A stretch of 64,000 bases of DNA from Tetradesmus obliquus. Taxonomy: Eukaryota > Chlorophyta > Chlorophyceae > Sphaeropleales > Scenedesmaceae. The stretch is from positions 5,304,501 to 5,368,500 of the forward strand of contig CP126192.1 of assembly GCA_030272155.1 (NCBI GenBank), in the 5' to 3' direction. The notes under the pieces are model-generated. The model did not search any database. It was not told the DNA's origin and was given only the letters and a program-made list of their open reading frames with translations. The translations under genes were made by a program, and so were the position numbers. Below are positions 3,423 through 61,800 of the stretch, in pieces (positions within the stretch are counted from its first letter, which is position 1; each line of letters begins with the position of its first letter).

Positions 3423-3778
3423 GGGACAGGACGGGTGCATATCTGTCAGCAGCTGCAGGTTTTCAAAGCACAGCGGCTTACACTCATGCCTGCTGCTCGT
3501 TGGTCAAGCCAGTGTTCGCGAGCTCCAACAAAGTGCCAGATTTGCCTCAGCCTGTACAGGTTCTGTGCAGGACGCGCGTTTACACGTCACTCAACATGAT
3601 GAACTGTCTTAGCCACACGCAATGCCGGTTGTGCAGGGACACCTGATGCGGCACACAGCAGCTTTTTGCCAAAGCCCATTACTGCCGGGAAGGACGCAGA
3701 TAAGAAAATATGCCTATGCAGTCGCACCTGCTACAGGCTCATGGTGCTGCAGTGCTTGCTCTGCCAGGTCAGCGGTTG

Positions 3779-4090
3779 CGTCAATTGACAGGCTCACTGC
3801 ATGTTCTGTCAATTGACAGGCTCACTGCATGTTCTGTCAATTGACAGGCTCACTGCATGTTCTGTCAATTGACAGGCTCACTGCATGTTCTGTCAATTGA
3901 CAGGCTCACTGCATGTTCTGTCAATTGACAGGCTCACTGCATGTCCTGTCAATTGACAGGCTCACTGCATGTTCTGTCAATTGACAGGCTCACTGCATGT
4001 TCTGTCAATTGACAGGCTCACTGCATGTTCTGTCAATTGACAGGCTCACTGCATGTTCTGTCAATTGACAGGCTCACTGCATGTTCTGTC
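3779..4090. repeat. 28-bp minisatellite with palindromic core
   Basis: About eleven head-to-tail copies of a 28-bp unit that contains the perfect 12-bp palindrome TGTCAATTGACA. Copies are almost identical; one (near 3945) carries T-to-C. The array extends into the end of an exon of the - strand copy A gene; on that strand each unit contains GCAGTGAGC, which resembles a splice donor. Confidence 0.95.
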
Positions 4091-6708
4091 AAGATGTCGC
4101 AAAGGGTTTCCGTCATGTCAACATTGCCACGCGCCACTGCCAGCTCCAGAAGAGACCAAAGTACGTCCACGTCCACAAACTCTGCACGTGGCAGCAGCAG
4201 TAGCTGCCGCAGCATTCAACTGCACGAAGCAAGGACAAATGCAGCAACGTGAGGTCATCTACTAGTGCAGCGATCAGGCCAATGAAGTGTGAGAGCATGC
4301 TACAATGAAGTAAGTATGTCGAGGCTGATGAGTCGCTTGAAAGAGTGTTGCAACATGCAAGCAGCGTACTGGGCAACAATGTAAGGCAAAGTACCGCACT
4401 CCTCCTCACATCTGCCTATCTGCCACCATGCAAACTGCAAAGCAGCCTGTCTCACCTGTCGCAGGGGCAGAAGCGTACATGCTGCAGCAGGTCCTCAATC
4501 TGCTCCGACCCCATTTCCCCTGCTGCCGTCAGGCCCAGCAGCAGATCAGCCCCAGGCCGCCATGTGCTGCTCGAGCTGTCAACCACCCGGTGCTGCAGCA
4601 GAACACCCAGCAGCTTGCACACGTGCTCCGCCTCCAGTGCTTCTGCTGCTGGCTGCTCGCACAGCAGCTTCAAGTGTCACCTGTCTGCCTTGAGCAGTGG
4701 CACCATCATCACGGACACGTAGTCTGCAGGGGCGATGTGCTGCGCAGCTGGCATCGCCAGCAGCAGCAGCACTGGGTTTCTGTTGCCGTCAACGGCGCGC
4801 AAATCATTTGGCTGATGCTCCAGCACACTGCGCAGCACAGCTGCTACACTAGCAGGCAACTGCAGACAGCAGCGGCACAAGCAGCCACACCCACGTAGCT
4901 GAATTATGTATATGCTAGCACTCTTCAAGCCTAACAGCTGACTTGCATGCATGACATCAAGCTCCTCTCAAAAACCAATCATCGGACTCTGCACGGATGA
5001 AAAATGGTGTCTGAAGATCAAAACTGCTGCGAGCATTGCGCGAGTGCGGCGGGTGACTCACCATTGCGGCTGCCCCAGGCAACTTCAGCAGCTTTGGATA
5101 CAGTATGCTGCTGCGCAAGCAAGCTTCCGGCTCCAGCGGGTACAATGCTGGCACCAGCTGCAGCAGCTGCTGCATGCGCTGCGCAGGAATGTGCTGCGCG
5201 GCCGCAAGCTCCAAGAGTGCAAAGCTCATGTCTCCGGCCCCCTGTAGCAGCACCTGCTGCAGCACTCCTGCAACAGCCTCAGGGTCCAGGCTGTGTGATG
5301 CCGGCAGCCACTGCAGACTGCGGACGACGTTGGCGTTTCCGCACTGCACTGCTTGCTTCAGCAGGGCGGCAATGGCGTCCACTGCGTCGCCAGGAAGCAG
5401 GCAGCACGCAAATCAGCATCGTCGCGTTGATGGTGAGGCAGCAGCACCGTATCAAACCAGCAAGGAAGCAAAAGGATGCATACAGATGTGCTGAGAGAGC
5501 CAGACACGGTACAAGACAGCTGTTCCAAGGCGTGGCATATAACTGTGCTGTTTTGCATCGCATGTCTTTGTTATGCTCTGCAAGCACTTGTGAGGGGTTT
5601 GCGGCGCCCACGGCAGGACTGCTAGCTCACCTGTAATAGCAGCACCGGCAGGTAGCTGACACAGGGTGCTTGAAATCTCATCCCTGTAGGCAGGGCTGCA
5701 CTGCTTGTTCATCCTGTCCAGCAGCTGCTGCAGCAGCTGCGGCGTGACCTGCTGCTGCAGCGCCTGCTGCTGCTGCGGCCGCAGCTGCTGGTTGTCGTTT
5801 GACAGAGCCTTCATGAGGCCTGTCAAGTGCAGGCTGTGCATCGTACGGGTCTGTTGTTGCAAGTTGACGGCAAGCTGCAGGATGCCAGGCAACTGTGCTG
5901 GGTCCAGCGCATCTAGCGCCTTGGCTATCTGCTGCTTGATGCCCTCATAGACGGCATCCGTATCTTCAACGTCCTGCAACAAGAGCAAGTTTATATTATG
6001 AGCAGTGCACGGGGATGATTGAGATGTTGGGCAGAGGTGTTCTGTAGCGCGTAGGATGCTGTGTGTGAAGCTGAGTGGCAGGTGAAGCAGTGACTGGTTG
6101 GCATCCTGCAACATTGACGGCTTGCACATGCAATGTCCTGTAATCAGATGCTGACAACATCACAAAGATTGCCACAAGCAGGAGGTTGATCGACAGCCCA
6201 CCTGCACATCTAGCAACATGTTTGACCATTGTCAGGTACTCACCCATATCTTGTCGCAGACCAGCAGCTTGGCAAGCTCTGGGGCATCTGGCACTGCACC
6301 TGCCTGGATCCACACCCAGGCACCAGCCACTGGCCGTGCACAGGCCTCAAGCGCTTCCTGGTATGTGAAGCACAGGCCTGCTGATGCCAGCGCTTCCGCT
6401 GCTGCCACAGGCACCATGGGTGTGCTCAGCAGTGCAGCCCTGCCTTGCAGGATGCTGGAGGGTTCAAAGCATCTGTGCTGGCAAACCCATTGCACGGCAG
6501 CACTGCAGTTCTTGCTGCGGGCAGCTGCAGTGCGCACGCTTTTGTGCAGCAGGAGCAATGCTGTGCTGCTGCTGCTGAACAGCGCATCTACTGCCGCACG
6601 CAGGCCCTTGCTGCTGCAGGCCAAGACAGCCAGAGAAGCACAATCGAGGGACGGCAGTACTCTTGCAAGCACCTGTTGCACCGCCTCGGCTGTAGGTGCG
6701 GGCGCCAT

Positions 6709-27643: not shown

Positions 27644-30600
27644 ATGCAGCCCACGATCCGCACAACTTTAACCGTGGCAATGCAGCAAGTGTTAGAAAGG
27701 CTCATGCCCTTCCTCGAATCTGCTTGTCTGGCTGTCATGGCCTGCAGCAGCAAGGGCCTGCGCGCAGCAGTAGATGCGCTGTTCAGCAGCAGCACCACAG
27801 CCTTGCTCCTGCTGCATAAGAGCGTGCGCGCTGCAGCTATGCACCGCAAGAACTCTAGAGCCGTAGAGTGGGTTTGCAAACACAGATGCTTTGAGGCCTC
27901 CAGCATCCTGCAAGGCAGCGCTGCGCTGCTGAGCACACCCATGGTGCCTGTGGCAGCAACGGAAGCACTGGCATCAGCAGGCCTGTGCTTCTCATACCAG
28001 GAGGTGCTTGAAGCCTGTGCACGGCCAGTGGCTGGTGCCTGGGTGTGGGTCCAGGCAGGCGCAGTGCCAGATGCACCAGAGCTGGCCAAGCTGCTGGCAT
28101 GTGGCAAGGTGGGCAGTGACTGTGTTGCGGATGGGCTGCCAGATCTGCCTTCTGCTTGCCTCTATAACCGTACTGCACAGACAGCCCGTGTCTACAATTA
28201 TACATCGTTGTAAGAAGTTATACCTAAAGCCGTCTGAAGCAGCTGCAATGTTATGCACAAATGCCAGCGGTCAGTGCTTCGACCGCTGCACAGCTCCACA
28301 CGCAGCTGTTGGCTTGCTGCAGAATACCTTTGCGCAATTCCATCATACATTAGCTGTATTCATGTTGTCGTATGCTGGCTGTTGGTTCCAGCTGGACTAT
28401 GAGAACAGCAATGGCGCCGAGCACATCAAGCAGCTGGTTGCTACGGCACTAGATGCGCTGGACCCGGCACTGTTGCCTGGCATCCTGCAGCTTGCCGTCG
28501 GCTTGCACAAACAACACCATACGGTGCAAGCCCTTTACGTGGGCTGGATGACCTTTGTTCTGGTAGACGGCAGCGTGCATCTACGGCCGCAGCAGCAGCA
28601 GGCGCTGCAGCAGCAGGTCACGCCGCAGCTGCTGCAGCAGCTGCTGGACATGCTGAGCAAGCAGTGCAGCCCTGCATATAGTGCTCAGGTGGCAAGCAGC
28701 TTGTGCAAGCTTCCTGCTGGTGCTGCTATTGGAGGTGAGCTGGCAGTCATAGGTGTGGGCATCATGCACTCAACCGCAGCTGGCATCATGCACTCAACCG
28801 CAGCTGGCATCATGCACTCAACCGCAGCTGGCATCATGCACTCAACCGCAGCTGGCATCATGCACTCAACCGCAGCTGGCATCATCAGCACTGAACTGCA
28901 GCTGGCATCATCAGCACTGAACTGCAGCTGGGCCTGTGCTTCTAGTTGCATATGGAGGACATGCACTTACTGTGCACAAAAGTTTGGGCTTTCCACCATC
29001 ACTGTGATGTAGCCATTTCTCGTGCTTCTGGCCAATGCAGCGAACCTGAGGCATGGCGTACGCTGCGCTGGCCTGCTGTTTTGGAGAAGCATTACCGCTA
29101 ATTGCAACTGCGCCTGCTGCCTGCTGCTTTTCACCGCAGGTGACGCCGTTGCTGCTCTTCTGCAGCAAGCAGTGCAGCACAGAAGTGCCGGCTTTGTCTG
29201 CAGTCTGTGGTGACTGCCGGCAGCTCACAGCTGTGACCCTGAGGCTGTTGCAGGACTGCTGCAGCAGGTGCTGCTGCAGGGAGACACTGCAATGGGGCTG
29301 TGCCTCACAGAGGTGCCAGCTGCAGAGCACATCCCGGCGCAGCGCATGCAGCAGCTGCTGCAGCTGGTGCCAGTGACATGCATGCTGCAGCTATGGGGCA
29401 TCTCGATGTTTGAAAGGCTGCTGGCACTGCCTGGGGCGGCTGCAATGGTGAGCTGCAGCCCTCGGCTTGCACAGCGCTTAGGGCATATGTGTGGTTTTGC
29501 ATCTCACCCTGCGTCTGTGTCAAATGCCTGGCCTTGTGGGCATCCTACAACACGTCATGCATGCAAGCCGGGCATGTTGGGCATACAATTCCCTACCACT
29601 CTGCAGCACTGACCTCTTTTCGATCAAGTGCTTCTGGTGCTGTTGTTGCAGGAGCCTGCCGGTGTGGCAGCTGTGCTGCGCACTGTGCTGCAGAACCAAC
29701 TGAAGCATTCTGAAACCGACCATTATCAGGAAAGGCCGTCGATTTTGCTGGTGGCAATGCCAGCTGCGCAGCACATCTCGGCTGATGACTTTGCTTCCCT
29801 ATTGAAGGTGCCACTACTCAAGGCAGACAGGAACTGCACCCTTATGCTGTGTGAGCAGACGGCAGCCCAAGCACTGGAGGCTGAGCACATCTATGAGCTG
29901 CTGGATAGCCTGCTGCAGCACCGGGTGGTTGACAGTACACACAACATATGGCTGCCTGGTGCTGATGTGCTGCTGGGCCTGCCAGGAGCACAGGAGCTGA
30001 GTGCAGGGAAGATCAAGGACCTGCTGCAGCACGTTAGCTTCGGCCTGCTCGACAGATTAGACGATGGGGTTGCAACTTCAAAATGCATGCCCAGAGTCGC
30101 AGGAAGGCATGCATGCCAGCAGGCACGCGTGACAAAGGAGGCATGGCTGTGCATGCTATGAACTGCAGCTTGCGCTGTGTGCTGCACACTGTAGGCAGCT
30201 GCGTCACATCGCTCATCACCGGTGCTGTTGGCAGATCATGATCAATGCACTTGCTCTTGATCTCCAACTCCACCACGTCCCTTGTTCCTTCACGCAGTGA
30301 GGTGCAGCGGCAGCTGCTGCTGCTGCCAGATGCTCAGCTGCTGGATGTACATGCACTGTGGTCTTCGCTGGAGCTGGCAGTGGCTCGCTGTGATGTTGGT
30401 GTCACCTCAGTTCTGTCCGACCTCCTTGAGCCACACGGAGACTTCCTGCTGCTTCTCAACACTGCTGGCTTGGCAGAGAAGGCGCTGCAGCAGCACGAGC
30501 CTGTAGCAGGTACAGCTTCTCAGGCACATACCACAGCAGGGCCTGCACCATCACTGACACTGCTTGCTGGTACAAGAGTGCTGCCATCAGCGAGTGAGAT

Positions 30601-38584: not shown

Positions 38585-41500
38585 ATGGATGCTTCAATTA
38601 TCAAGAAAGTTTCTGGTGAAGGTGTCGTGGCGCCTGAGCCAGCAGCGCCCGCGTTGGTGCCTGCTGCAGCAGAGGACATGGTGGTACACAGCTCAGTCGA
38701 GCCAGCTCCGCCTGCTGATGCCTCTTCTGCCGGGCAAGCGGATGAAGCTGATGTACCTTCAGCATCTGGCTCAACAGCCACGAAGTTTGACCCTCTGGAA
38801 GGTCTGCAGGCAGCGTCATATTGCTGCGTGTACTGCCTGGCATGTTTACATGCGATCTGCAGTAGGCTTGCGTGCTGTATTGTCTTGCATTCACATCCTT
38901 ACAGTTGACCTGGTTCAACTAATCCGTAAGCTGCATGCACAATGCTCGTTGCCAGCTGCAAGCGGCAGCTTATGTATGCTTCCTCCTGCATCATTGGCAT
39001 GCTGCTGCCTTCCTGATCTTCACAATTACAGCCTCCTGCAAGCGTACCACAATATTCGCACCTTATCAACCGTTATTGCTGCTGCAGCTCTGAAGCTGGG
39101 CAGCCTGCGGCTGGCTAACATGCTGAAGCGGGATCCAAAGCAGCAGCAGCAGCAGGTGCAGGCAGACACATCCAGCCCTGCAGCTGCCTTGGACTCTCCG
39201 CAGCCTGAGCAGCAGCACAGCAGCGAAGTGGTGGCTCGGCTCAAGGCCACTGCTGCTGGGTACGTGTTGTCATGGGGCCATACCTCATGCTGTGCTGTGA
39301 TTGGAGCTGTCCTGCTTCAGTGTGTGGGGCTTTCACCTGACACGCGTGTTAGTGTAGCAGTGACAGCAACAGCAGGCAGCATCTGCTTCCACAGCCTGCA
39401 TAAATTGCGCATGCACATGTTGTGCTGTGCGCTGCAGGGGCATGACTGATTATTGCGTGACAGCTGCAACCTGCAGAAGCAACTTGTGGTTGGTGTACAC
39501 ACAAGCAAGGTATGACATCAGCATGCTGCTGTTGCTTGCACTTCATGCTGCAGGCTGGGTTTGCGTGCCAAGGAGCAGGGCAGCCGCTTCTACCAGGCAT
39601 CAGTCAAGACAGCAGCCTCAACAGCAGAGGGCATCAAGAGGCTGGCTCAGGGCGAGCCGCTGCAGGTGGGATGGCGCTGTGCAGCAGGAACCAGCAGCAG
39701 CAGCAGCAGCAGCAGTGCAAACATGTTGCACAGAAGAGATGCCATTAGACAGGCAGTTGCAGTTGCAGCAGCAGCATCAGAGCAGTGGCAGGAGTTGTGC
39801 GCATGTCAGGTGCGCATGCTGCGTGGGATGCGATCAAGGGGCGAAGTTCAGCACGAGCGCAACATGGTAGCTTTTTGAAAATGTCCCACAGTGCTTTGAA
39901 AGCGCTTGCGAGACTCAAGTGTAAAAAACACCCATGCAGATGAGCACACCGAACTGCCTGTTACCAAAGCAGCAGCACGACGCTGTCAAGGTGTTGGTGG
40001 ATATACATGTCTGCCTGGCTGCTGTCTTGATTCCACATGCATGCATGCAGGCGCTGTGCCGCAGCGAGGTGCTGGCGAGGCCCTGCCCACAGCTGGTGCT
40101 GGCATGCTGCACTGCGCTGGTGTGTGGCGGTGGCATCACCACACAGGCCATCTTCAAGCACAACCCTCCTCAGGAGCTGGTAGACAGGCTGGCGGCGACA
40201 GCAGCAGGTGGGTTGGCTGATGCACACGGCCAGGGCTGGTGTAATGATTGTGTGCGTAGCGGCAGCAAACAGCAATGCGATGCAGCAGAGCCTGGCAGGG
40301 AGCTGAAGACCACCAGTTGTTGCTACATGCGCGCAGAACGCTGTTGCTATCGACCCGCCCTGGCTTGCATTGGCTATGGTTACTTTGCATGTGTGGATGA
40401 TGCCTTCTCAAAGATGGAATGGCGCCTGCGCAGCTGTGGACAGCCATGTGTGAGTTGTTCTGCTGTAGCCACTTGGCAGGCTCGGAGACGCCCACAGCAG
40501 CGGAGCTACATGCTCGCAGAACGTTGTTGCTATCGAGCCGCACGGAACTTAAGCTGCTGTGTAAGCCGCACTGGCTTGTACTGGCTATGGTTACTTTGCA
40601 TGTGTGGATGATGCCTTCTCAAAGATGGAATGGCGCCTGCGCAGCTGTGGACAGCCAGGTGTGAGTTGTTCTGCTGTAGCCACTTGGCAGGCTCGTAGAC
40701 GCCCACAGCAGCGGAGTTACATGCGCGCAGAACGTTGTTGCTATCGAGCCGCACTGGCTTGTACTGGCTATGGTTACTTTGCATGTGTGGATGATGCCTT
40801 CTCAAGATGGAATGGCGCCTGAGCAGCTGTGGACAGCCAGGTGTGAGTTGTTCTGCTGTAGCCACTTGGCAGGTTTTTGCTATATCGCCTGCAGCAACTT
40901 TGCAACAAAAGATGTGCTCTTTCCCCCAGGCACTTTTTCACACAGACGATGACAGACGATGATGATGATGAATTATATGTTGTTCATGTGGATGCTCTCT
41001 GCAGACCTGGCTGTGTTCCCTCCTGGCGCCAGCCCCCATGCCGTGGCTGGCCTGCTGAAGCAGTTCCTCATGGGCCTGCCTGAGCCGCTGCTGACCTACA
41101 GGTGCGTGTGTGTTGGCGAGGGTCGCTGTGAAGCTGTTGTACCAGATGTGCTTTTGCATGATGGGGCAGTGAAGGGATCATATGCAGCATGTGTGGGTTG
41201 GGAGCAGGAGTGTGGTTTGATGTGTGTGGATGAGTCATTTCCCAAACTTACCGCCTCACAATTTGCCATGCTGCCAAACTTTGTCTTTGCTGCAGGCTGC
41301 TGCCGCAGTGGGTGGCTGCAGGAGATTGCCCTGAGTCAGCAGGCGCGCTGCTGCACCAAATGCCCCCAGCCAACGCCAACGCGCTGCGGCTGCTGATGCA
41401 GACCTGCTGCTACATGAATGAGCAGGCGGCACTGAATGAGATGGACAGCCAGGCGCTGGCAGAGGTGGGGCGGCTGACACCAGTGTTGTGTTATGATTGA

Positions 41501-43108: not shown

Positions 43109-44085
43109 ATGAGCTTTGCGTTCAAGAAGTTCAACTTCTTCCAGCAGCATGAGGTCAAGATACATGGCTTTCCTGCAAACAGCACCTGCCACTGCTTGGG
43201 CGGCAGCCTGCTGTATGTGGGCTGTGACAACGGTACAGTGCATCTGCTGGATGAGGCGTTCCAGTCACAGGGCTCGCTGAGTGCCTATGGCCACAAAGTG
43301 CTCTTCATAGCCTGGGCACCTGTGAGTACAGCAACAGCGCACTGGACGGATGCAGGCAGTGCAGGCAGTGCTCAGTGCAACTTATGCTTGTGCAGTTTGG
43401 CGTTGGTGACATCAAGGCTTTGCTTTTGGAAGTGCTGTGCAGACGGCAGAGCAACAGCAGCTGCTGCAGCAGCAGATGAGCACTATACAACTGCTGCCGC
43501 TGCTGCTGCTGCTGCTTGCTTGCTTTATTCTGTACACCACAGCCAGGGCATGTTGGCACATTGTGCAGCTTGACTCGACTTGATGCACACAGCTTGCCTC
43601 TGGTTACATTTAATAGCAGTAAGCTGGGCTCCTCTGTCATTGCTGCAGGCACGTCAGCTGCTGGTTACAGTGGGCCTTGAGGAGCCAGGCATTTCCACAG
43701 CAACACTTAAGGTCTGGGAAGCCGAGCGCGTGGCAACAGCAGCAGCAACAGCAGCAGCAGCCAGCAGCGCGGCAGCAGCCATCAGCGCCCTGCCGCAGCC
43801 AGCAGCAGCTTCCGCAGCCGCAGCCAGCCTGCCGCCGCTGCGCTTACACAAGCTGTTCAGCAGCAAGCACCCGGAGAGTGAGGTCACTGCACTTGCAGTG
43901 GCAGATGACGGCAGTGCGGCTGGGCACTTGCTGCTGGTTGCTGTCGGGCTTGCAGCGGGCGCGGTGCATGTGTTTTCTGGCGATGTGTCCAGCCAGAAAG
44001 GCAAGCTGACGCACACAGGGAAGCTGCAGGTTCGGCCAGACTCAGGGGAGCTCTGGAAAGTCAATGCGCTGGTGTTTGCAGCACC

Positions 44086-44124
<39 letters not shown>

Positions 44125-45731
44125 CAGGAACGGCGCCTCGAACAAGGATCCTGCAGCAGCAGCAGGAGGCAGCAGCAGCAAGATTGCCGCGCTCGGGCGC
44201 AGCACTCCTGCAGCCAGCGGCGGAGGCGCATGCGAGAGCAGCAGCAGCAGCAGCAGCCAGCAAGCAACGCCAGGTCAGCAGTGGATGTATGTCGTCACTG
44301 AGGCTCAGACGCTGGCTTTTAACATGGCAGATATGTCAAAAACGATCCTGGATCAGCAGGGGCTGCTGGCCAGTGGCTGTGCAGTGCTGCAGGAGGGGCT
44401 GCTGGTGGTGGCACGGGACGATGCGCTGTACGAGTACACACCCGAGACGCGCGCCGGCTGCACAGCGTTTGAAGGTGCGTCGGCTGTGCTGTGTGTTGTG
44501 CTGTATGATGAAGGAGCGTGTTGGGACTTGCTTGTGCGGCTAATATGTTAGGCGTGCTTTTGTTATGGTGCCTGATGTACGCATGCTGGCAGCTGCAAAC
44601 GCAGTTCATCTGGCCGCAGCATGCAGAACCTGCTGCCTGTTCGTTCACAATATACAAAGCCGGCCTGCCTTCACAGGCATCTTTCAGGTCTCAAGCAGAG
44701 ACTGGCAAAGCTGTGACGCTGCCTGGCCGTCACACTTCCACAGCACAACATCACCCCGCACCTCAAAACATGCAACAACGCTGCTATTGTACGCTCTTCG
44801 CATGCATCTTGCAGGCCTGAAGCAGGGCCTGGCCAAGCTGCGGCGCTACCTGGTGGCCACCACAGACGACACAACATCTCCCCACGCCCCAAACATGTAA
44901 CAAACATCCCTTCGCTTGTTCTGCACATGCGCCTGCGCAGGCCTGAAGCAGGGCCTGGCCAAGCTGCGGCGCTACCTGGTCGTCACCACAGACGACACAA
45001 CATCTCCCCACGCCCCAAACATGTGACAAACATCCCTTCGCCTGTTCTGTGCATGCATCGTGCAGGTCTCAAGCAGGGCCTGGCCAAGCTGCGGCGCTAC
45101 CTTGTCGTCACCACAGACGACACCAGCCCGGATGGCGCCGCCAGCAGCCAGCTGCACCTGCTGGACGTGCGCAACAAGCTGCTTGCAGGAAGCTTCGGCC
45201 TGCAGGGCCTGGCGGCTGTGGTGGTGGGCCCTGGCGGGCTGGCCACGTGGGACAAGGCGGGCCGGCTGGTGCGCTACTTTGAGGTGGAGCTCAGCACGCA
45301 GGTGGGGGGCTGGGGGCTGTGTGCCTTGGCTGTTTGTTGCGATTCCTACTGTTCATCACCTTTTAGCAACATTTTGCTTTTGCAAGGACTAGGAGGTGCT
45401 TTGAGGTGGAGCTCAGCACGCAGGTGGGTGGGGGCCTGGGTGCGTGCCTTGATGAAAGGTTCCAGTGAATCTGTGCTTTGCAATCGACAATTGGGTGGGG
45501 TTGCAGCTGCGCTGCAATGGCTCGGAAGGCAGTGCTTGAGGCTTGGGGCACATTCCGGTGATTGTTAACATTCACTGTACCGTTACAGTAAGATGGACGG
45601 GCTTGCGCTGACAGGCACAAAGCTTGGCACTCGATTTGGCACAGGCAGTGTGCAAGTGAAGCTGGGAGCCGCACTGTCTACTACCGCTCAAGCCCCTACC
45701 AATGTATGTTCTTCAAACACCATCAACACAT

Positions 45732-45782
<51 letters not shown>

Positions 45783-46181
45783 ATCGCACCCTCAGCTGGA
45801 GGTGCTGTTCAAGCGCAGCCTGCACAAGCTGGCGCTGGACCTGGCCCTGTGCCATGATGCTGACCCACAGCTCATCGCAGCCATTCGCCAGAGATGGGGT
45901 GGGTCACACCGCTTCATATTGCTGGTGCATGAACAAACATACTTGCCCTGCACAAGAACAGATGCTGCTTTGGGCATAGCAAGCTCATCGGCAGTTGAAC
46001 ATTACTGGCAGTTTTGCAAGCTGGACGGTCGGCAGCTTGACTCTACCCTGTGCAGCACTTGATCGGTGTGTGCAGTATCGGTGCGCTGGACATGTTTGTG
46101 CTGTGGCAGCTCATCATGTGCTGACATCTCTGACCATGTTGCTGTGGCAGAGGTACAAGGCAGATGGTTCAGACGCTGATG

Positions 46182-46232
<51 letters not shown>

Positions 46233-49200
46233 GCCAGGCGACCACCTGTACGCCAAGGCCGAGTACGAGGGCGCCATGGCTCAGTACCTGGAGACTATCG
46301 GCAGCGACCTGGAGCCCTCCTACGTCATCCGCAGGTGGGGTTGCGCACGCGCATTGCTGCAAGGCCAGCAGTTCAACAAAGAATTGTGATGAAACCAACA
46401 GGCAGAGTTACCATCCAAAACACGCAGCTTTCCATAACGTGTGCACACATCTGCAGTATCTGCGCAACCCACGACACCTGATGCTCAACATGTAACATGT
46501 AACAACAAACTATAACGCAATATGGAACATGCCACTCGCTGCCGCAGGTTCCTTGATGCGCAGCGCATCCACAGCCTGACTCGCTACTTGGAGCAGCTGC
46601 ATGCAGCCGGCCTGGGCACAGCCGACCACACCACGCTGCTGCTCAACTGCTACACCAAGCTGAAAGATGTTGGGAAGCTAGATGCTTTCCTGCACAGGAA
46701 TGCAGGCAGCAGCAGCAGCAGCAGCAGCAGGGGGCCTGCAGGGGGTGTTGGGGGAGGTGCTGCTGGCATGGCTGTGCTGGCAGCAGCTGAGAAGGCTGCG
46801 AGGCGCCATGGCAAGGGCGGGAAAGGCGAAGGTGAGCGGCACTGCAAATTCCTTAGAGTCTGTGGCAGACGCTATGTGCTGGTGTCGCTGCAACCTGACA
46901 GGTCTGTGACATTTGGATAAGTCATCGCATGCCTCAGCCACATCTGGCTGCACAGGCATTCACTTGTGGCTGGCAGCCGTGCTATCCTGTCACCATTGCT
47001 GGGGTCCACCTGTGTCCATAGGCTATACAGGCCTGCAGCAACACTGACACCGCGTGCAAATCTACCATGTGCTGCACCAGAAGCTGGCTGCACAGCTGGC
47101 CAGCCACATCCACCCCTTTGTCGATGCTAGCTCCATATTGTATGTACTGCTTTCGCCGAATTGATGCTGCGCAGGCCCGCAGCTCAGCTTTGATTCTGAG
47201 ACTGCTTTCAAGGTGGATGCACACCTTGCCAGCCACACCAACTTCTTTGTCCCTGCCCCCACCGACATGTGTGTACATGATCTTATTGTTATGCACGATG
47301 GCACCTATTTGCAGCAGGGCCGCAGCTCAGCTTTGACCCTGAGACCGCATTCAAGGTGCTGCGCAGCGCCGGCTACGCGCAGCACGCATTGTTTGTGGCG
47401 GAGCAGGCAGCGCAGCCGGAGTGGATCCTTGACGTGCTGCTGGAGGACATGGGCAGCTTCCCTGAGGCACTGGCCTTCATAGGTGGGCTGTGGCATTGAG
47501 GGTTGTGGAACTGATGGTTGAGTTGTAGGGTAGGGCTTAGGGCAGCCTAGGGTCTAGGGTTGAGGTTCTGGTTCTGGTGAGAAGCATGATTTTCCGAAGT
47601 AAGGCGGACATACTAGATGTGCTGCTCATTGACATGCGGCATGCGTAGCTACGCTTGTGGGGCTCGGCATATCCACTTGCGCTGCCTGCTGTGCTGTCAT
47701 TTCTGCAGGCATGCTGTCGCGGCGGCAGCAGGCGCAGGCGCTGCAGCGCTACGGCAAGCTGCTCATCGGCGCTGCCCCAGATGACACCACCGCGCTGCTC
47801 ATGGCGCTCTGCATGCCGGGCCCGGAGTCTCAAGCAGACCACACCGGCGACTCGGCGGACGCCAAAGCCGATGCGAAGTTCGTCGCTTCTGTTGCGGACT
47901 ACGCGCAGCTGTACGCGGACCGGCCCACTCGGCTGCTGTACCTGTGCGAGTTTATATTGTTTCACAGTAGTGAAGGGGAGGTCCCGCAGGAGCAGCAGCT
48001 GTACCATACGCTGCTGGAGCTGTACCTTGCTGAGCAGCTGGTGGACCATGAGCTGCAGGAGGCAGCAGCAGGCAGCGCAGCAGAAGTGGCACCGCAGGTG
48101 GGCAGGTCTGGCGTGCGTTATTGCGTCGTGCACGGGACACAACTGTACAAAGGTAGAAAAAGTTGTGTCTGGAGTTGCGCAGCAGAGGTGAGACCGCAGG
48201 TGGGTGAGACAGCACAGATGGGCATGCATGGATCCGAATTTATGTGCGCTGTGTTGTGTTTGTTGGGTAAAGTTGCCTGCATGCTAGATGAGCCACTGAA
48301 CCATATGCTGGTGCTTGCTTACGCACCTGTCACGCGCAGTTGATCTGTTGGTTGTGTCTGCTTCCTACATGCCTTGCGCCACAGTGACCACTTCTTGCTG
48401 TTCAGTGCAGTTTGACCCGAGCTGGTAGTGCTGCTGTGCGCTTGCCACACTGCTGCTGCATGCAGGCGCGGCGCGACAAGGCCCGGGAGCTGCTGCAGCG
48501 CGGCTGGCAGCCGCACATGGCGCAGCCCAAATATGACCCGGAGCATGCGCTGGTGCTGTGCAGGTGGGCGCAGTGGCAGCAGCAGCAGCAGCAGCACCAC
48601 CACAACATCTGGCCATGCTCTGGTGATGGGCGGAGCGTTTTTGCTACTGTTAGGTAGCAGCAAACGGCTTGGGGTGTTCATAGATAGAGACACACTGCGC
48701 CACTGTCGCGCAAGAGCTGTAGCCACATGCTGGTGTCGGTTTACTCACAACAACCGACCTGCGGCATGTTCTTGTCTTCTGCGCCTGCAGGCAGCACAGC
48801 TACGCGCCTGGGTTGGTGCTGTGGCTAGGGATTGGGATGTTGTGATGCATGCAATGTTCAGCTGTGCCGCATGGCCTTGGTTCACCAAGTGCCCTGTCAT
48901 GGAGTCCAGCCCCGCTGCTGTTGTCTGCTGCACCCGCAGGCAGCACAGCTATGTGCCTGGGCTGGTGCTGCTGTATGACAAGAAGAGGCTGTACAGGGAG
49001 GTGGCCGCACTGCACATGCAGGCGGGAGACTACGGCAGCCTCATCGCAGCATGCGTGCAGTACGGTGACGCAGCGGCAGGTGCAAGCCCGAGGGTTTCCG
49101 TACAATGCTTCCTGCAGACGCTCGTAGTGTTGTGTGCGTGCGTGCAAATTGCTGCTCGCTGGTTGTGTTGTGTGCGTACATGTTGAAGCCAGGGGTGGCA

Positions 49201-49801
49201 TATGTGCAGCCAGGTCAGCATTGACTCAGCACACACCAAGTTTGAACGCTGCTGCACGTCCATCCAAAAAACATGCTCTTTGTCTTCCTGTGTGTGCCTG
49301 TGTGGCCAGGCAGCGACCCCCCTGTGTCTTCCTGTGTGGGCTGAGGCTTGGGAGTTATCTTAGGCAACTGCATGTGTGCATTCATCATGATGTCAACCCT
49401 TGTATGGTTTACGGGCAGGCTGGCACGCCTGCATGCTTGAACCGTTTATGTGTCTCCGTGCGTGCAACATGCATGCAGGTGGTGACCCGCAGCTGTGGGC
49501 TGAGGCTCTGGAGTTCTTCTGCAGCCAGCCTGGGGACTGCTCCTCAGCCATCAGCCAGGTGCTGCAGCATATTGAGCAGGGGGAGCTGCTGCCGCCCCTG
49601 GTGGTGCTGCAGACGCTGGCCAAGAACAAAAACCTCAAGGTAGGGTTTGTCTATACATCAAGTGCGTCCCAGGACCTAGCGTATAACGTGCATGTAGGTT
49701 TGGTTGTTTGCTTGCCTGCCTGCATGTACAGTGCGCGGCAGTGAGCACACTCCAAGGATTGTACGCTGCGTGATGCAAGCAGACTGTGTGGTGCTGGCTG
49801 A

Positions 49802-49836
<35 letters not shown>

Positions 49837-50962
49837 AGGTGTCCATAGTCAAGGACTATGTGGCGCGCCAGCTGCAGATGGAGGGCAAGGAGATCGCCAA
49901 AGACAGGGACACCATCAGCCGCCTGCAGGTGCGCTGCTGCTGCTGCTGACAGTGGTGCTGCTGCTGCATTCGTCATAAGCTGGTGCACACTGGCAGTTGA
50001 CCCCGCTGTGCAAGCTTTGCCGCAGCTGGGCTGCAAGCTGGTTTTAGCTGCAGGCGCATTGAAGTGCGCGCAAGCACACGAACACTGTGGTCACTAGGAC
50101 CCTCTTGTCGTGCGTTGTTGCAGGCTGAAACGCCTGCAATGAAGGCAGAGGCGGCCAGCTGAGCACACATCCCTGCTGCACCTTCAACAGAGACCTTTGA
50201 GATTGCCGCACACTGATATCTCAAGTGATCACTACTGCGTTGCGTGTCCTGCAGGCTGAGACGTCTGCAATGAAGGCAGAAGCAGCCAAGCTCAAGAGCC
50301 AGCCGCATGTGTTCCAGAGCAGCCGCTGCGCCGCCTCAGGGCAGGCGCTGGAGCTGCCTGTGGTGCACTTCATGTGCGGCCACTCCTTCAACCTGCGCTC
50401 CCTGGGGGAGTCCGACAGGTGAGAGTGAGTGAGTGAGTGAGTGACCACCCAGGCAGCTCTGCAGCTCCTGGGTAAGTTAAGGCTAAGAGGGTGTGTGTGG
50501 CCAGGGGCGCCGCCCCTGGGCTCCACACCCTCTACCCGAGGTGAGTTAAGGGAGGATGTAGGCTCCTCATTGTGCCGGCAGCTGTTGCTGCTCTGCTCAC
50601 AGCATTCTGCAGGTGCGCAGGGTGTGCCCGCAAGCTGGTTGCTTGTGGTTTGGCTGTTCAGGCAAGCGCTGCCGCTGTCTGGTTGCTCACCCTACACGCC
50701 TGTTCTACTTGCTGCTGCGTGTTGCCACAGGGAGTGCCCGCTTTGTGCGCCAGATTTCCGCCGCGTGCTGGACATCCGGCGCAACATGAAGGCGGGTGCA
50801 CTCAAGCCTGATGAGTTCTTCAGCCAGCTGGATGCCAGCGCTGATGGCTTTGGCGTGGTCGCGGAGCACTTTGGGCGCGGCGTGATGAACATGACGAAAC
50901 AGAGCATGGCCAGCCAGGGGGCGGCTGCTGGGGCAGGGGCAGGTGCCTTGGGGCAGCTGTAG
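43109..50962 (+). CDS. VPS11: VPS11, core subunit of HOPS/CORVET tethering complexes
   Basis: Fourteen exons: 43109-43321, 43649-44474, 45066-45301, 45796-45898, 46238-46334, 46548-46831, 47315-47482, 47709-48097, 48466-48563, 48940-49079, 49479-49639, 49839-49928, 50255-50418, 50731-50962; phases agree, giving about 1,066 residues (human about 940). The start MSFAFKKFNFFQQHEVK and VGCDNGTVHLLDEAFQSQGS open the beta-propeller. The alpha-solenoid is clear: YEGAMAQYLETIG, LEPSYVIRRFLDAQRIHSLT, DHTTLLLNCYTKLKDVGKLD, PEWILDVLLEDMGSFPEAL. The C-terminal zinc region reads HFMCGHSFNLRSLGES and CPLCAPDF. VPS11 scaffolds the class C core that tethers late endosomes and vacuoles. Exon 2 adds Ala and poly-Gln (CAG) inserts in the propeller. 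The RING is degenerate, lacking three expected ligands. Many introns carry copies of adjacent exon edges (separate entries). Confidence 0.96.
44085..44121 (+). repeat. (CAG)n coding poly-glutamine tract in VPS11 exon 2
   Basis: About 12 CAG codons translate to an uninterrupted Gln run inside the beta-propeller, between FAAPQ and GRNG; further Ala/Gly/Ser tracts follow. It lies in a loop-like insert absent from human VPS11. Confidence 0.9.
44688..45190 (+). repeat. Four tandem copies of VPS11 exon 3 start with acceptor
   Basis: The sequence around GGCCTGGCCAAGCTGCGGCG, each time preceded by an AG acceptor, begins at about 44688 (diverged), 44815, 44941 and 45066, a period of 125-127 bp. Only the last copy continues into the rest of exon 3. 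If spliced, copies 2 and 3 (44815, 44941) would run into a stop shortly after the Thr-Asp-Asp codons (TAA near 44898 and TGA near 45023). Confidence 0.92.
45732..45781 (+). repeat. (CTG)n run before VPS11 exon 4 acceptor
   Basis: About 14-16 CTG triplets end 14 nt upstream of the acceptor at 45795, so the run occupies the place of the polypyrimidine tract. Confidence 0.9.
46182..46232 (+). repeat. (CTG)n run before VPS11 exon 5 acceptor
   Basis: About 17 CTG triplets end 5 nt upstream of the acceptor AG at 46236-46237. Confidence 0.92.
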
Positions 50963-51884
50963 CTTTTGTTTGTACAATGTTCATTGTACAGTATACTCAT
51001 TGCAGCAGAGCATGGCCAGTCAGGGTGCGGCGGCAAGTGCAGGGGCAGGTGGCTTGGCGCAGCTGTAGCTGATGTTTTTACGATGCTCATTGTATACTCA
51101 TTGCAGCAGAGCATGGCCAGTTAGGGTGCGGCTGCTGGGGCAGGTGGCTTGGCGCAGCTGTAGCTGACGTTGTTACGGTGCTCATTGTATACTCATTGCA
51201 GCAGAGCATGGCCAGCCAGGGGGCGGCGGCAGGTGCAGGGGCAGGCGGCTTGGGGCAGCTGTAGCTGACGTTGTTACGGTGCTCATTGTATACTCATTGC
51301 AGCAGAGCATGGCCAGTTAGGGGGGCGGCAGCAGCGGCAGGCGCAGGCGGCTTGGCGTAGCTGTAGCTGTACAGCCACAAGAGGATGTGTTGCACTGCAG
51401 CTGTGGAGGCTGTTCAGGCGTGTGTTTGTGTTCACGCTGTGCAGCGCACACCAGCTGGATCATAATCTGCAGACATGCAACCTGCATTCATTGATGGCGG
51501 GTACGCCACCGCCAGACATGCAGATGAATTCGGCCGCTTGGACGGAAGGAATGCCACATCTCATGGCATGATTCTGCCATGCATTGTGCTTACATCTTGT
51601 GATGTTGCAAAGCGGCGGCGTGTGCTGCAGAACACAGCTGAGGATGATGTGATGAACGTCGTTGATGCTTAAACCACAGATGCATATGTGCTTGCGGCAT
51701 GCTCAGCATGCAGTGCAACTTCGGCCCTTGCATAACTAGAAGGGTTGTCTGCATACCACTGATCACCCTGCGGTTAAACTTCTAGCACATGCCAGAACAT
51801 GAGCCCGGGGCTGCCTGTACGTGGGAAAGGGCCGTACACGCCAGCCACGTGGCTGCAGATCCTTTTCCAGTCGCAGCTGCCCAG
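50963..51884. other. Convergent spacer, VPS11 3' array then unique sequence
   Basis: After the last-exon repeat array (to about 51365), roughly 520 bp of unique sequence reach the stop of the - strand gene. I see no gene in it. Confidence 0.5.
51006..51365 (+). repeat. Tandem copies of VPS11 last-exon end
   Basis: The stretch beginning CAGAGCATGGCCAG in the last exon (50900) recurs at 51006, 51107, 51202 and 51303, spaced 95-106 bp. Each copy carries an acceptor-like TTGCAG just before it, the Gly/Ala-rich codons and a CAGCTGTAG-like stop (diverged in the last). They lie after the used stop at 50960-50962. Confidence 0.9.
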
Positions 51885-58808: not shown

Positions 58809-61800
58809 ATGTCACTCTCCAGAGTGGTCATCACTCCAGGTCAGCTGCTGTTTGCATAATTGAACGTCCTGGCAAACTGACAGGCAGCATTGAGCGGCAA
58901 ACCTAGGCTGTACTGTGACGCTGGCGCTCTTGTTGCTGCTGTTGCAGAGGTGTTCCTCACCTGCACAACCCATGCGCTCAGCACAGAAGCAGAAGAGGTC
59001 ATGGGTCTGCTTCTGGGAGACATCAGGGTAGGTTGAACCCAGCTACACCAACACTATTGCAGTTACACTTGCAGTATGGCTTGAAGTTCCCGCCCTTATC
59101 AGCAGCAGATGTGCAAACCACCTGCATTGCAGTGCATGTCCATTAATTGATTGACGTATTCATCCTGTGGGCCTGTGCCGGGTATCGCCAGCTGCACACC
59201 CACTCCGCAAACAATCTACTGCTATACTGCAATGGCTGCTGTAATGGTAGCAGTAGCAGCTGCACCTGAGCATCCAATCCTGTGTTCGGCACCCTGCTTC
59301 TCTTGTGGCTGCATGCCTGCAGGGCGAGGAGGGCAGCCTAGTGGCGCACATCCGCAGGGCAGTGCCACAGATACGCACAGACCGGCGAAAAGTGAGCGCT
59401 GCTGGGATGGAGCAGCAGGATAAGCTCTGTTGATTAGCAGCAGCAGCAGCAGCATTGTGCTCCCTCACATGGGGATACATGCTGGCAGCAGTTGCTGGTA
59501 CATGCAATGCCTGTTGATCTGTCAGGACATATCTTACTGGAGCTGGCTGTGTCATCCATATGCTTCACAGAGCTTGTTAGAACCACATCATGTGATGCCT
59601 TTGTGCAGTTGTCCAACAGGCAGCAGTCAAAGACTGCAGTGTTCTGATACGCTGCAGGGAACGGTGCTAGCAATGCTGCACTTGATCTGCACCGTCTTAT
59701 TATCATGCATTTGCAGGACCGTGTTGAGACGAGTCCCGAGCAGATGGCTGCATGCAGCGCGCTGGCGGAGCACGTCAGCAGCAGCACAGGCCTGCCCACG
59801 CGTGTTGTGGGGTGGTACCACAGCCACCCCCACATCACTGTGCTGCCCTCACACGTGGATGTAAACACACAGGTGGGTGTGCTGCAATCGCTGTGCAAAT
59901 GCATGGTAGTGAGGTATGTCTGTGTGTACTGCCTGCTGCACCTGAAGCCTGCTTGTACCGCCTGCATGTACCGCCTGCTGCACCTGAAGCCTGCGTGTAC
60001 CGCCTGGATGTACCGCCTGCATGTACCGCTTGCACGTACGGCTTGCATGTACCGCCCGCATATACTGCCTGCTGCGTGGCCTGCCTGCCTACTTTGAACC
60101 CCCTGCCGTACACCCTGCCATGTACCCGATGGTAGATGCATGCTTGATTGGACTCATTTTCTCCGTGTTCAAACAGTGTTGCACGTTCAAGTGCACATCA
60201 CATGACGCATGTTGCTCTGCTGTCCACCACCGCAGGCCATGTACCAGATGTTAGATGAGGGCTTCATTGGGCTCATCTTCTCAGTCTTCAACAGTGCGCC
60301 CAGCAAGGAGCAGACAATCCAAGTGACAGCCTTCCAATCGCTGCCAGGCGGTGACGCAGCAGCAGCAGCCGGCCTGCTGCAGGGAGTCAGCAGCGATGAC
60401 CTGGCAGGTCTAGACCTGCAGACGCAGGAGGCGCTGCGCGCGTCAGCAGCAGGTGAGTAATCCCGTGTGTGGATTACGATCACTGTGACGTCAGGCGGCG
60501 CCGGTGGGCAGCCGCCAAAAAGTTGTTGCAAGTGCAGCTGCCAGCACTTGCTGGTGCTGCATGCACAGTTGTATACAGCAGCAGGGTGAGCAGTCGATTC
60601 AAGACCCTATTGTACATCAACACCTGACCCACTTCTTCAGCCCCTGATAGCCCCTGACCTACTCCTTCGGCCTGCTGCTGCCACACTGTTGGGTATGTCA
60701 CGTTCTTCAAATGGTCTTCAAATGCTGCAGAGCACATGCAGGAGGCGAGTGGCGTCAGCTGGCACCGCAAGGAGGTGCCGCTTGCTGTGCTGCAGGATGG
60801 CAGCAACCCCAGCACACTCAGCGACTATGGTGAGCTGCTGTGATCTTGGTCTGTTCTCTTAAATTAAACTGCATGCTTGGCTGCTGCAGCACTTGCAGCA
60901 GTTGCAGGGCTGCACATCAGGTGTGAGGAGGCTTGGCTGTGGTGTCTTTTTTACTGTGGTTTTTGGGCAATGTATACGCTTGCAGCCGAGGCAGAGCATC
61001 ATGGCAAGCAACCATGCGCTCATGTGCATCAGACCTGCATTGTCACTGGTGTCTGCTGCACAACCCCGCATACACGTTCTCATGCGTCAGCGTGGGTCTA
61101 TATGTTATGTTACACAGGTTGACGCGCCTTGCAGCTGAAGAGAATTGCTATCTCCTGCTCCCTGCTGCCCTGTGTGCTGCAGTTGAGGTGCAAAAGATGC
61201 TGCTAGCAGAGGAACAAGCAGCACACCAGCAACACAAAGCAAGCAGCAGCAACCACAACAGCAGCAGTGTACACGAAGCACTGCTGCAGCTGCATGACAG
61301 TGCCATGCACCAGCAGGCGCTGCTACAGCATGCAGAGTGTGTGCTGGCTCCTGCAGTGGCAGCCATGCGGGCGCTTTCAATACAAGCAGATGTGCAGGAG
61401 CAACAGCTGCAGGAAGACAACAAGCGCTTGCAGGTGCGCTGACGCAGCAGTTGCCAGTGGTAATGTGTGCAGCAGCATGCACTGTTTATGTCCACTTGCA
61501 TACAAAGCTACAAGTTGACTCTGCATGGGCCGCTAGCCAAGTGATGCAGTGCAAGCGGCTTCCAAACAGCCATCGTGAGAAGCACACGTATGACATAAAT
61601 GGTCCAATGAAACTGCCTGAGGATGCTGCGTGCATCGCGACTGTTGAGATTGCACCAAAAGATCAATCGTTATCACACGCTTGCTCTGCTCTTGCTTCTG
61701 CAGGAGCTGCTAGATGCACAGCTGGCAGCAGCAGCAGCAGCGGCAGCAGCAGCAGCAGCAGCAGCTGACATATGCGCTGACTCAGATGCTGGTGATGGAG

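What the first reader, a model, noticed from the sequence alone, without database searches (positions are those of the whole stretch)
43109..51365. VPS11 introns repeatedly carry decayed copies of neighbouring exon edges
At least seven introns and the 3' flank of one gene contain a copy of the adjacent exon start with its acceptor, or exon end with its donor, at offsets of roughly 95-170 bp. This is far more than expected by chance and suggests recurrent local tandem duplication across splice sites as a way introns grow here. It would also generate decoy exons that could be spliced to make truncated, degraded transcripts. Tandem duplication spanning a splice site is a proposed intron-gain route; a whole series in one gene is unusual.
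Basis: partly seen in the sequence, partly recalled or inferred. Interest (0 to 1): 0.85.

Follow-up and report, generated by a model that had tools for sequence, protein, structure and literature searches.

The report
Copied exon edges lengthen algal introns
In what looks like a green alga, short stretches at the ends of exons have repeatedly been copied into the neighbouring introns, in this gene and in others sampled, and introns with such copies are longer and carry spare, possibly usable splice sites.

Summary
VPS11 (14 exons, four Pfam families over cut-off) carries copies of the adjacent exon edge in 7 of 13 introns (six ungapped, one gapped) and five copies of its CDS end in the 3' flank, 95-159 bp apart. 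It is not peculiar to VPS11: in 314 kb of the same genome 40 of 433 exon edges have a >=24/30 copy in the adjacent intron; reversed, reverse-complement, shuffled and non-adjacent introns give 0. Nearest copies mostly lie 80-180 bp away (31 of 38), are clustered by gene, and their introns are longer (median 494 vs 296.5 bp). So recurrent local duplication that lengthens introns is supported; "a whole series in one gene is unusual" is not. Plain tandem duplication plus neutral decay does not cover everything: 20 of 38 pairs share intron sequence, but 15 of 38 show none, although their exon parts are equally similar. Decoys mostly keep intact splice sites; decoy acceptors have real-looking pyrimidine tracts. 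I read this as recurrent insertional duplications of roughly 100-150 bp from break repair or replication errors, surviving where one coding edge stays in register. Known kind of process; unusual density, repeat length and size mode. RNA, reads and related species could not be checked.

The parts
43109..50962 (+). VPS11 gene, 14 coding exons (43109-43321, 43649-44474, 45066-45301, 45796-45898, 46238-46334, 46548-46831, 47318-47482, 47709-48097, 48466-48563, 48940-49079, 49479-49639, 49839-49928, 50255-50418, 50731-50962)
   Evidence: in-frame model with GT-AG introns; Pfam; recovered by the home-made HMM with one acceptor 3 nt off (the HMM was trained from this gene)
44674..44733 (+). most diverged decoy of the exon 3 head (acceptor before 44688), with an in-frame stop
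   Evidence: 82% over 60 nt to 45052-45111; stop in the copy
44811..44930 (+). second decoy unit of the exon 3 head (acceptor before 44815), tandem unit of 126 bp
   Evidence: 95% to 44937-45056
44937..45056 (+). third decoy unit of the exon 3 head (acceptor before 44941), nearest to the real edge 45066
   Evidence: 95% over 62 nt to 45062-45123; intron part homologous, p=0.003
45399..45431 (+). decoy of the exon 3 tail with donor (copy of 45277-45309)
   Evidence: 97% over 33 nt; 27/30; intron part not significant, p=0.17
47081..47215 (+). decoy of the exon 7 head (47171-47215, acceptor before 47175), preceded by a decayed copy of the intron tail (47081-47147 resembles 47210-47276)
   Evidence: 89% over 45 nt and 72% over 67 nt; intron part p=0.003
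48177..48204 (+). decoy of the exon 8 tail with donor (copy of 48075-48102); its use would add 34 aa in frame
   Evidence: 89% over 28 nt; 21/30, and consequence
48767..48821 (+). decoy of the exon 10 head with acceptor (copy of 48916-48970)
   Evidence: 85% over 55 nt; 27/30; homology reaches about 24 nt into the intron
49335..49366 (+). decayed, gapped decoy of the exon 11 head (resembles 49494-49523)
   Evidence: local alignment 19.0 vs best shuffle 15.5, p=0.002; not found by the ungapped test
50119..50157 (+). decoy of the exon 13 head with acceptor (copy of 50250-50288)
   Evidence: 90% over 39 nt; 26/30
50900..51369 (+). five copies (the first is the real CDS end with TAG 50960-50962) of about 101 bp running into the 3' flank
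60117..60172 (+). decoy of the head of another predicted gene's exon (real 60236-60291), the only strict exon-edge copy found elsewhere in the window; its AG is not kept

Best explanation
Recurrent local insertional duplication at the edges of coding sequence. A break-repair or replication error re-copies a stretch that starts some 22-95 bp inside an exon and ends in the neighbouring intron or 3' flank, adding mostly 80-180 bp. In about half of the cases intron sequence is copied along with the exon edge, up to complete tandem units. In most of the rest only the exon edge and splice motif are recognisable as a copy, and what lies between the copies is sequence without a known source, as after repair of a staggered break with an insert. 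Such an event leaves the protein unchanged when one complete exon edge stays in register, so these survive while events inside exons are removed by selection. The spare copy then decays in the intron, which is now longer. Shown: the copies, their size mode, orientation, edge association, the two classes, and the intron length difference. Inferred: the molecular event and the selection filter.
For: 40 of 433 exon edges (20 of 214 acceptor, 20 of 219 donor) have a copy; reversed, reverse-complement and shuffled introns 0, non-adjacent introns 0 of 429; 45 nt into the exon 7 of 361, 90 nt 1 of 268, 120 nt 1 of 197; predicted CDS ends 2 of 22. 58 of 104 repeat clusters straddle an edge against 24.7 (sd 3.6) with rotated annotation, 0 of 400 rotations reaching it. 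Orientation: 4 inverted hits (score >=20) in the first 264 kb, where another search found 152 adjacent direct pairs (score >=22, minisatellites included); the two searches are not matched in every setting. Lag: 31 of 38 nearest decoys 80-180 bp, median 125.5; 80 of 116 repeat clusters of any kind 80-179. Introns with copies 494 bp (n=37) vs 296.5 (n=308), p=1.6e-5. Matches run from 30/30 down to the cut-off of 24/30, so events of several ages are seen. Tandem units: VPS11 intron 2, an L006 array. Four stretches between copies, from three genes, have no match in the genome outside their own place or tandem copy (that search skips very common words).
Against: If one process made both classes, it is not explained why the added length is about the same with and without homologous intron (median lag 132.5 vs 122). 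Real-decoy differences are silent more often than free decay predicts: 113 of 183 (62%) for nearest strict decoys, 249 of 476 (52%) in the wider set, 82 of 171 (48%) for best decoys, against about 40% expected. Sequence without homology before a real acceptor must still work as an intron tail, which random filler rarely would. Intron-only clusters are rarer than rotation predicts (17 vs 28.4), so a preference for exons beyond the selection filter is possible. A scan of single 30-mers did not separate exon edges (6.6% with a local copy) from deep intron (5.3%), because decoys and arrays are themselves counted. Of 20 fillers compared with 264 kb, 4 do have a clear match in the same locus, so some fillers are older copies.
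Confidence: 0.6

Rival explanations
1. Plain tandem duplication across splice sites followed by neutral decay, explains everything.
For: 20 of 38 nearest pairs have significant intron-side homology and 3 more are borderline; complete arrays exist; decoys carry in-frame stops, 8 in the wider set against about 10 expected from the non-silent count.
Against: 15 of 38 pairs show no intron homology at the same exon identity (0.903 vs 0.915), among them pairs with 95-100% identical exon parts (L006 7184, window 45301, L020 6606, L011 5042). In L006 the exon head is identical in three copies while the sequence before the first is unrelated to that before the others.
Confidence: 0.17
2. The second copy came from a diverged allele of the same gene (unequal exchange between haplotypes), so exon edges match and intron parts do not.
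For: Excess of silent differences; decoy acceptors without intron homology still have pyrimidine tracts (0.667 in 6 decoys vs 0.494 at 3466 intron CAG sites, p=1e-4); four fillers without a source in the assembly.
Against: Pairs with 95-100% identical exon parts have no detectable intron homology, a large gap for alleles; tandem units with alike introns also exist.
Confidence: 0.12
3. Assembly or consensus artefact that strings two haplotypes together at exon edges.
For: No reads could be checked; false duplications are a known assembly problem (recalled, no call).
Against: Copies differ widely in divergence and some carry stops; arrays of several units; lags mostly 80-180 bp; uneven spread over genes, 0 of 2000 permutations reaching it.
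Confidence: 0.08
4. Decoys are kept as working alternative splice sites, for example for regulated nonsense-mediated decay.
For: Intact AG in 17 of 19 (18 after re-phasing one acceptor) and GT in 17 of 19; decoy donor score equal to or above the real one in 12 of 19; pyrimidine tracts; decoy use gives an early stop for 7 of 8 VPS11 decoys tested.
Against: Only 4 of 19 decoy acceptors score as well as the real one; intact sites are roughly what their age would leave without selection (my estimate, no call); stops and non-silent changes accumulate.
Confidence: 0.05

Closest known systems
Staggered double-strand-break repair with insertion in new Daphnia introns (PMC4202315; abstract part and passages seen)
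   Same: Inserts flanked by direct repeats, a repeat of terminal exon bases at the other end, mostly unknown source, proposed trend to longer introns
   Different: Exon-derived repeats there are 4-12 bp and the introns are new; here the exon part is about 22-95 bp, at edges of introns not known to be new, with 80-180 bp added as a rule
[quoted passage not shown] abstract and section 5 read)
   Same: Tandem copy of intron tail plus exon head; splice signals inherited with the copy
   Different: There a new intron and an inserted exon piece enter the mRNA; here, by the gene model, the copy stays inside a longer intron
Rogers-type tandem duplication of an AGGT exon segment (PMC2891723, PMC3443670; passages seen)
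   Same: Local tandem duplication involving splice-site sequence
   Different: That makes a new intron of the length of the unit out of exon sequence; not seen here
Introner elements (passage in PMC3443670)
   Same: Intron sequence increasing, reported there in the alga Micromonas
   Different: No dispersed family found: the four fillers searched have no match elsewhere in the genome
Duplication mutations of flap-processing (rad27/FEN1) yeast mutants (recalled, no call)
   Same: Direct duplications of tens to about a hundred bp
   Different: Not tested; no mutant or repair data for this organism

Membership tests
Tandem duplication across a splice site | Direct local copies containing exon edge and splice site | tested here: met
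   40 of 433 edges, reverse-complement 0; AG or GT mostly kept
Tandem duplication across a splice site | Intron part of the unit is copied too | tested here: inconclusive
   20 of 38 at p<0.01, 3 at p 0.01-0.05, 15 not
Staggered-break repair with insertion | Direct repeat flanking an insert without source | tested here: inconclusive
   15 of 38 pairs fit; 4 of 4 fillers searched genome-wide lack a source, but 4 of 20 compared within the sample match in the same locus
Staggered-break repair with insertion | Short repeats of a few to about a dozen bp | tested here: not met
   exon part of the 38 copies is 22-95 nt; shorter ones were not searched for
Intron gain by tandem duplication | A new intron at a position where relatives lack it | not testable with these tools
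   no related eukaryote genome held; G000 has no relatives here
Introner or other mobile element | Many similar copies across the genome | tested here: not met
   single places or a local tandem pair for the four fillers searched
VPS11 | VPS11 domains over Pfam cut-off | tested here: met
   PF23356, PF23341, PF23266, PF12451

The most novel reading that the evidence does not exclude
In this lineage a repair or replication process with a preferred product of about 115-125 bp keeps copying coding-sequence edges into the neighbouring non-coding DNA, so that much intron sequence is built from decayed exon-edge copies plus sequence of unknown origin, with each event adding a splice-competent spare site.
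Probability: 0.35. Interest if true: 0.82.

Novelty: new variant of a known kind. Interest (0 to 1): 0.62.

Why it matters
How introns lengthen and where new intron sequence comes from are old questions, mostly studied from rare single cases. Here about one exon edge in eleven still carries a recognisable copy, in all stages from identical to decayed, so the process could be measured, dated and compared between genes and strains. The pairs with matching exon edges but no recognisable intron homology are a specific puzzle that any mechanism must explain. The spare sites could also feed mis-spliced, degraded transcripts.

Tried and rejected
Rejected: dispersed intron element or introner (four fillers). 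Inverted templated insertions (4 inverted hits; no reverse-complement exon-edge copies). A copy inserted at a random intron place: decoy acceptors carry pyrimidine tracts that intron CAG sites lack. In one search I first counted 10 decoys without homology (0.68) by an anchored test; by the gapped test three of these have intron homology and two are borderline, so I re-ran it on the 6 acceptors with p>=0.05 (0.667, p=1e-4).

My first impression that exon edges are more than tenfold preferred did not hold: the rotation test gives 2.4-fold. My reading after (33 decoys, ungapped) that most pairs lack intron homology was too strong: gapped tests gave 15 of 33 and 20 of 38 with homology, an anchored test 22 of 40. 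Some 'exon only' cases were indels near the splice site, VPS11 intron 6 being one. The 38 pairs are the 40 strict edges less two whose nearest 24-nt match fell short (L013 2795, which had intron homology, and L028 9573). In the L006 7184 pair the gene finder took the middle of three copies as real; I left that pair out but not out, where it adds no differences. The 30-mer scan did not discriminate. The first gene-finder training over-predicted short exons and was replaced. Gene models outside VPS11 are predictions; Pfam supports proteins from six other loci given. In one search I also tried a ninth VPS11 site (47046) that is not a decoy; it is not counted. The VPS11 CDS end itself was filtered as low complexity. 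No paper in the listings describes such exon-edge copies in an alga, judged from titles and abstract starts only.
Full report
What the region is. The window is 64 kb of contig C2 of a 104.7-Mb, 17-contig assembly. An EFTUD2-like protein from the same genome matches chain 8xi2_C far better than the next chain (681 vs 467 bits); I recall 8xi2 as the Chlamydomonas reinhardtii spliceosome, so a green alga is likely but not shown. The gene at 43109-50962 (+) has 14 exons in frame, 1065 codons, GT-AG introns, and is VPS11 by four Pfam families over cut-off, with one VPS11_C match in the genome.

The observation. Copies of exon edges lie in introns 2, 3, 6, 8, 9 and 12 (21 to 28 of the 30 terminal exon nt; 200 shuffles and the other 12 introns reach at most 19) and, gapped, in intron 10 (p=0.002), while introns 1, 4, 5, 7, 11 and 13 have none at this level. 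The CDS end with its stop codon is present five times in the 3' flank at about 101-bp steps. Intron 2 has three decoys of the exon 3 head, at 95%, 91% and 82-83% identity with growing distance from the real edge. Elsewhere in the window only one further strict exon-edge copy turned up (60117/60236), beside minisatellites, a weak repeat at 1391-1495 and an array of long units at 40.3 kb.

Genome-wide. I took 25 further 10-kb stretches by place, not by content (20, 5), and predicted genes with a home-made HMM trained from VPS11 (it returns all 14 VPS11 exons, one acceptor 3 nt off). Of 433 exon edges not of low complexity, 40 have a copy of their terminal 30 nt (>=24 identical) in the adjacent intron: 20 of 214 acceptors and 20 of 219 donors. 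The same test on reversed, reverse-complement and shuffled introns gave 0, and against a non-adjacent intron of the same locus and strand 0 of 429. At 45 nt into the exon the count is 7 of 361, at 90 nt 1 of 268, at 120 nt 1 of 197. Predicted CDS ends: 2 of 22 (the VPS11 end is not among the 22, being filtered as low complexity); CDS starts: 0 of 33. The copies are unevenly spread: 15 of 40 locus-strand units have at least one, seven lie in one Tra1-like gene (L020; domain), and permutation of the copies over edges never reached the observed spread in 2000 trials. Introns with copies have a median of 494 bp (n=37) against 296.5 (n=308), p=1.6e-5 (all). Longer introns also offer more room for a chance match, but the controls show that chance matches do not occur at this cut-off.

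Size and orientation. The nearest decoys lie 68-313 bp away, 31 of 38 at 80-180, median 125.5. Among 116 clusters of direct repeats of any kind with lags of 30-600 bp, 80 have a smallest lag of 80-179, 19 below and 17 above. Inverted hits numbered 4 in the first 264 kb, where 152 adjacent direct pairs were found with somewhat different settings. With the gene annotation rotated along each locus, 24.7 of 104 clusters would straddle an exon edge; 58 do. Clusters wholly in introns (17 vs 28.4) and otherwise exonic (28 vs 41.5) are fewer than by rotation. Exon-internal ones are expected to be removed by selection, and intron-only ones fade faster because both copies drift; whether that covers the whole shift is open.

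Two classes. In 20 of 38 nearest pairs the intron parts are also homologous (p<0.01), 3 are borderline, and 15 show nothing, though the exon parts are equally similar (0.915 vs 0.903) and the lags alike (132.5 vs 122 median). The clearest case is the L006 gene (EFTUD2 by Pfam): three exon heads identical over 54 nt, two identical 83-nt stretches between them ending in a good acceptor, and an unrelated intron tail before the first head. The stretch occurs nowhere else in the genome than in these two tandem copies. Plain tandem duplication and drift do not give this. An insert of unknown origin between duplicated ends, as described for staggered breaks in Daphnia with much shorter repeats (PMC4202315), could. 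Three more fillers searched genome-wide match only themselves. Of 20 fillers compared with the 264-kb sample, 4 have a clear match, always in the same locus, so in those the filler is partly an older copy.

State of the decoys. AG is intact in 17 of 19 decoy acceptors (18 after re-phasing one) and GT in 17 of 19 decoy donors; 12 of 19 decoy donors score at least as well as the real one, but only 4 of 19 decoy acceptors do. Pyrimidine content upstream is 0.667 in the 6 decoy acceptors without intron homology and 0.638 in 10 with it, against 0.494 at 3466 intron CAG sites (p=1e-4 and 6e-5) and 0.63 at real acceptors. Real-decoy differences are silent in 113 of 183 (nearest strict decoys), 249 of 476 (wider set) or 82 of 171 (best decoys). 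The expectation with a freely drifting decoy and an exon accepting almost only silent changes is about 0.40. In-frame stops in decoys: 8, against about 10 expected from the non-silent count. So the decoys do not look like protected coding sequence, yet the silent excess is unexplained; a diverged allele as source, or unequal rates, would do. Using a decoy in VPS11 gives an early stop for 7 of 8 decoys tested and an in-frame addition of 34 codons for the intron 8 donor.

Verdict. It is a property of many sampled genes rather than of VPS11, it also acts at the CDS end, and part of it needs more than tandem duplication. Known mechanisms are close, but the density, the 22-95 nt exon repeats and the preferred size are not matched in what I saw. 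Whether other genomes show the same could not be tested with the data held here.

Noticed in passing
window 45732-45781, 46182-46232, 49805-49836: Long (CTG)n runs end within 15 nt of VPS11 acceptors; the acceptor profile learned in the over-predicting training run shows a CTG-like period of three rather than a plain T-rich tract.
   Followed up: partly
window 40322-40873: Array of 182-211 bp units in a predicted intron, 92-99% identical, a different size class from the exon-edge copies.
   Followed up: no
window 3780-4092 and 28758-28931: Near-perfect 28-bp and 24-bp minisatellites.
   Followed up: no
window 51006-51303: Two of the four extra CDS-end copies of VPS11 (51006, 51202) keep an open frame to the stop codon, and the extra copies are preceded by TTGCAG, so alternative last exons are conceivable.
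   Followed up: partly
L024 1491-9778: The same 308- and 317-codon open frames recur at steps of 3682 bp, which suggests a 3.7-kb tandem repeat.
   Followed up: no
L011 4943-10000: Stop-free frame of 1686 codons, alanine- and serine-rich, in a stretch with internal repeats at lags such as 102, 123, 126 and 240; whether it is a real gene is unclear.
   Followed up: no
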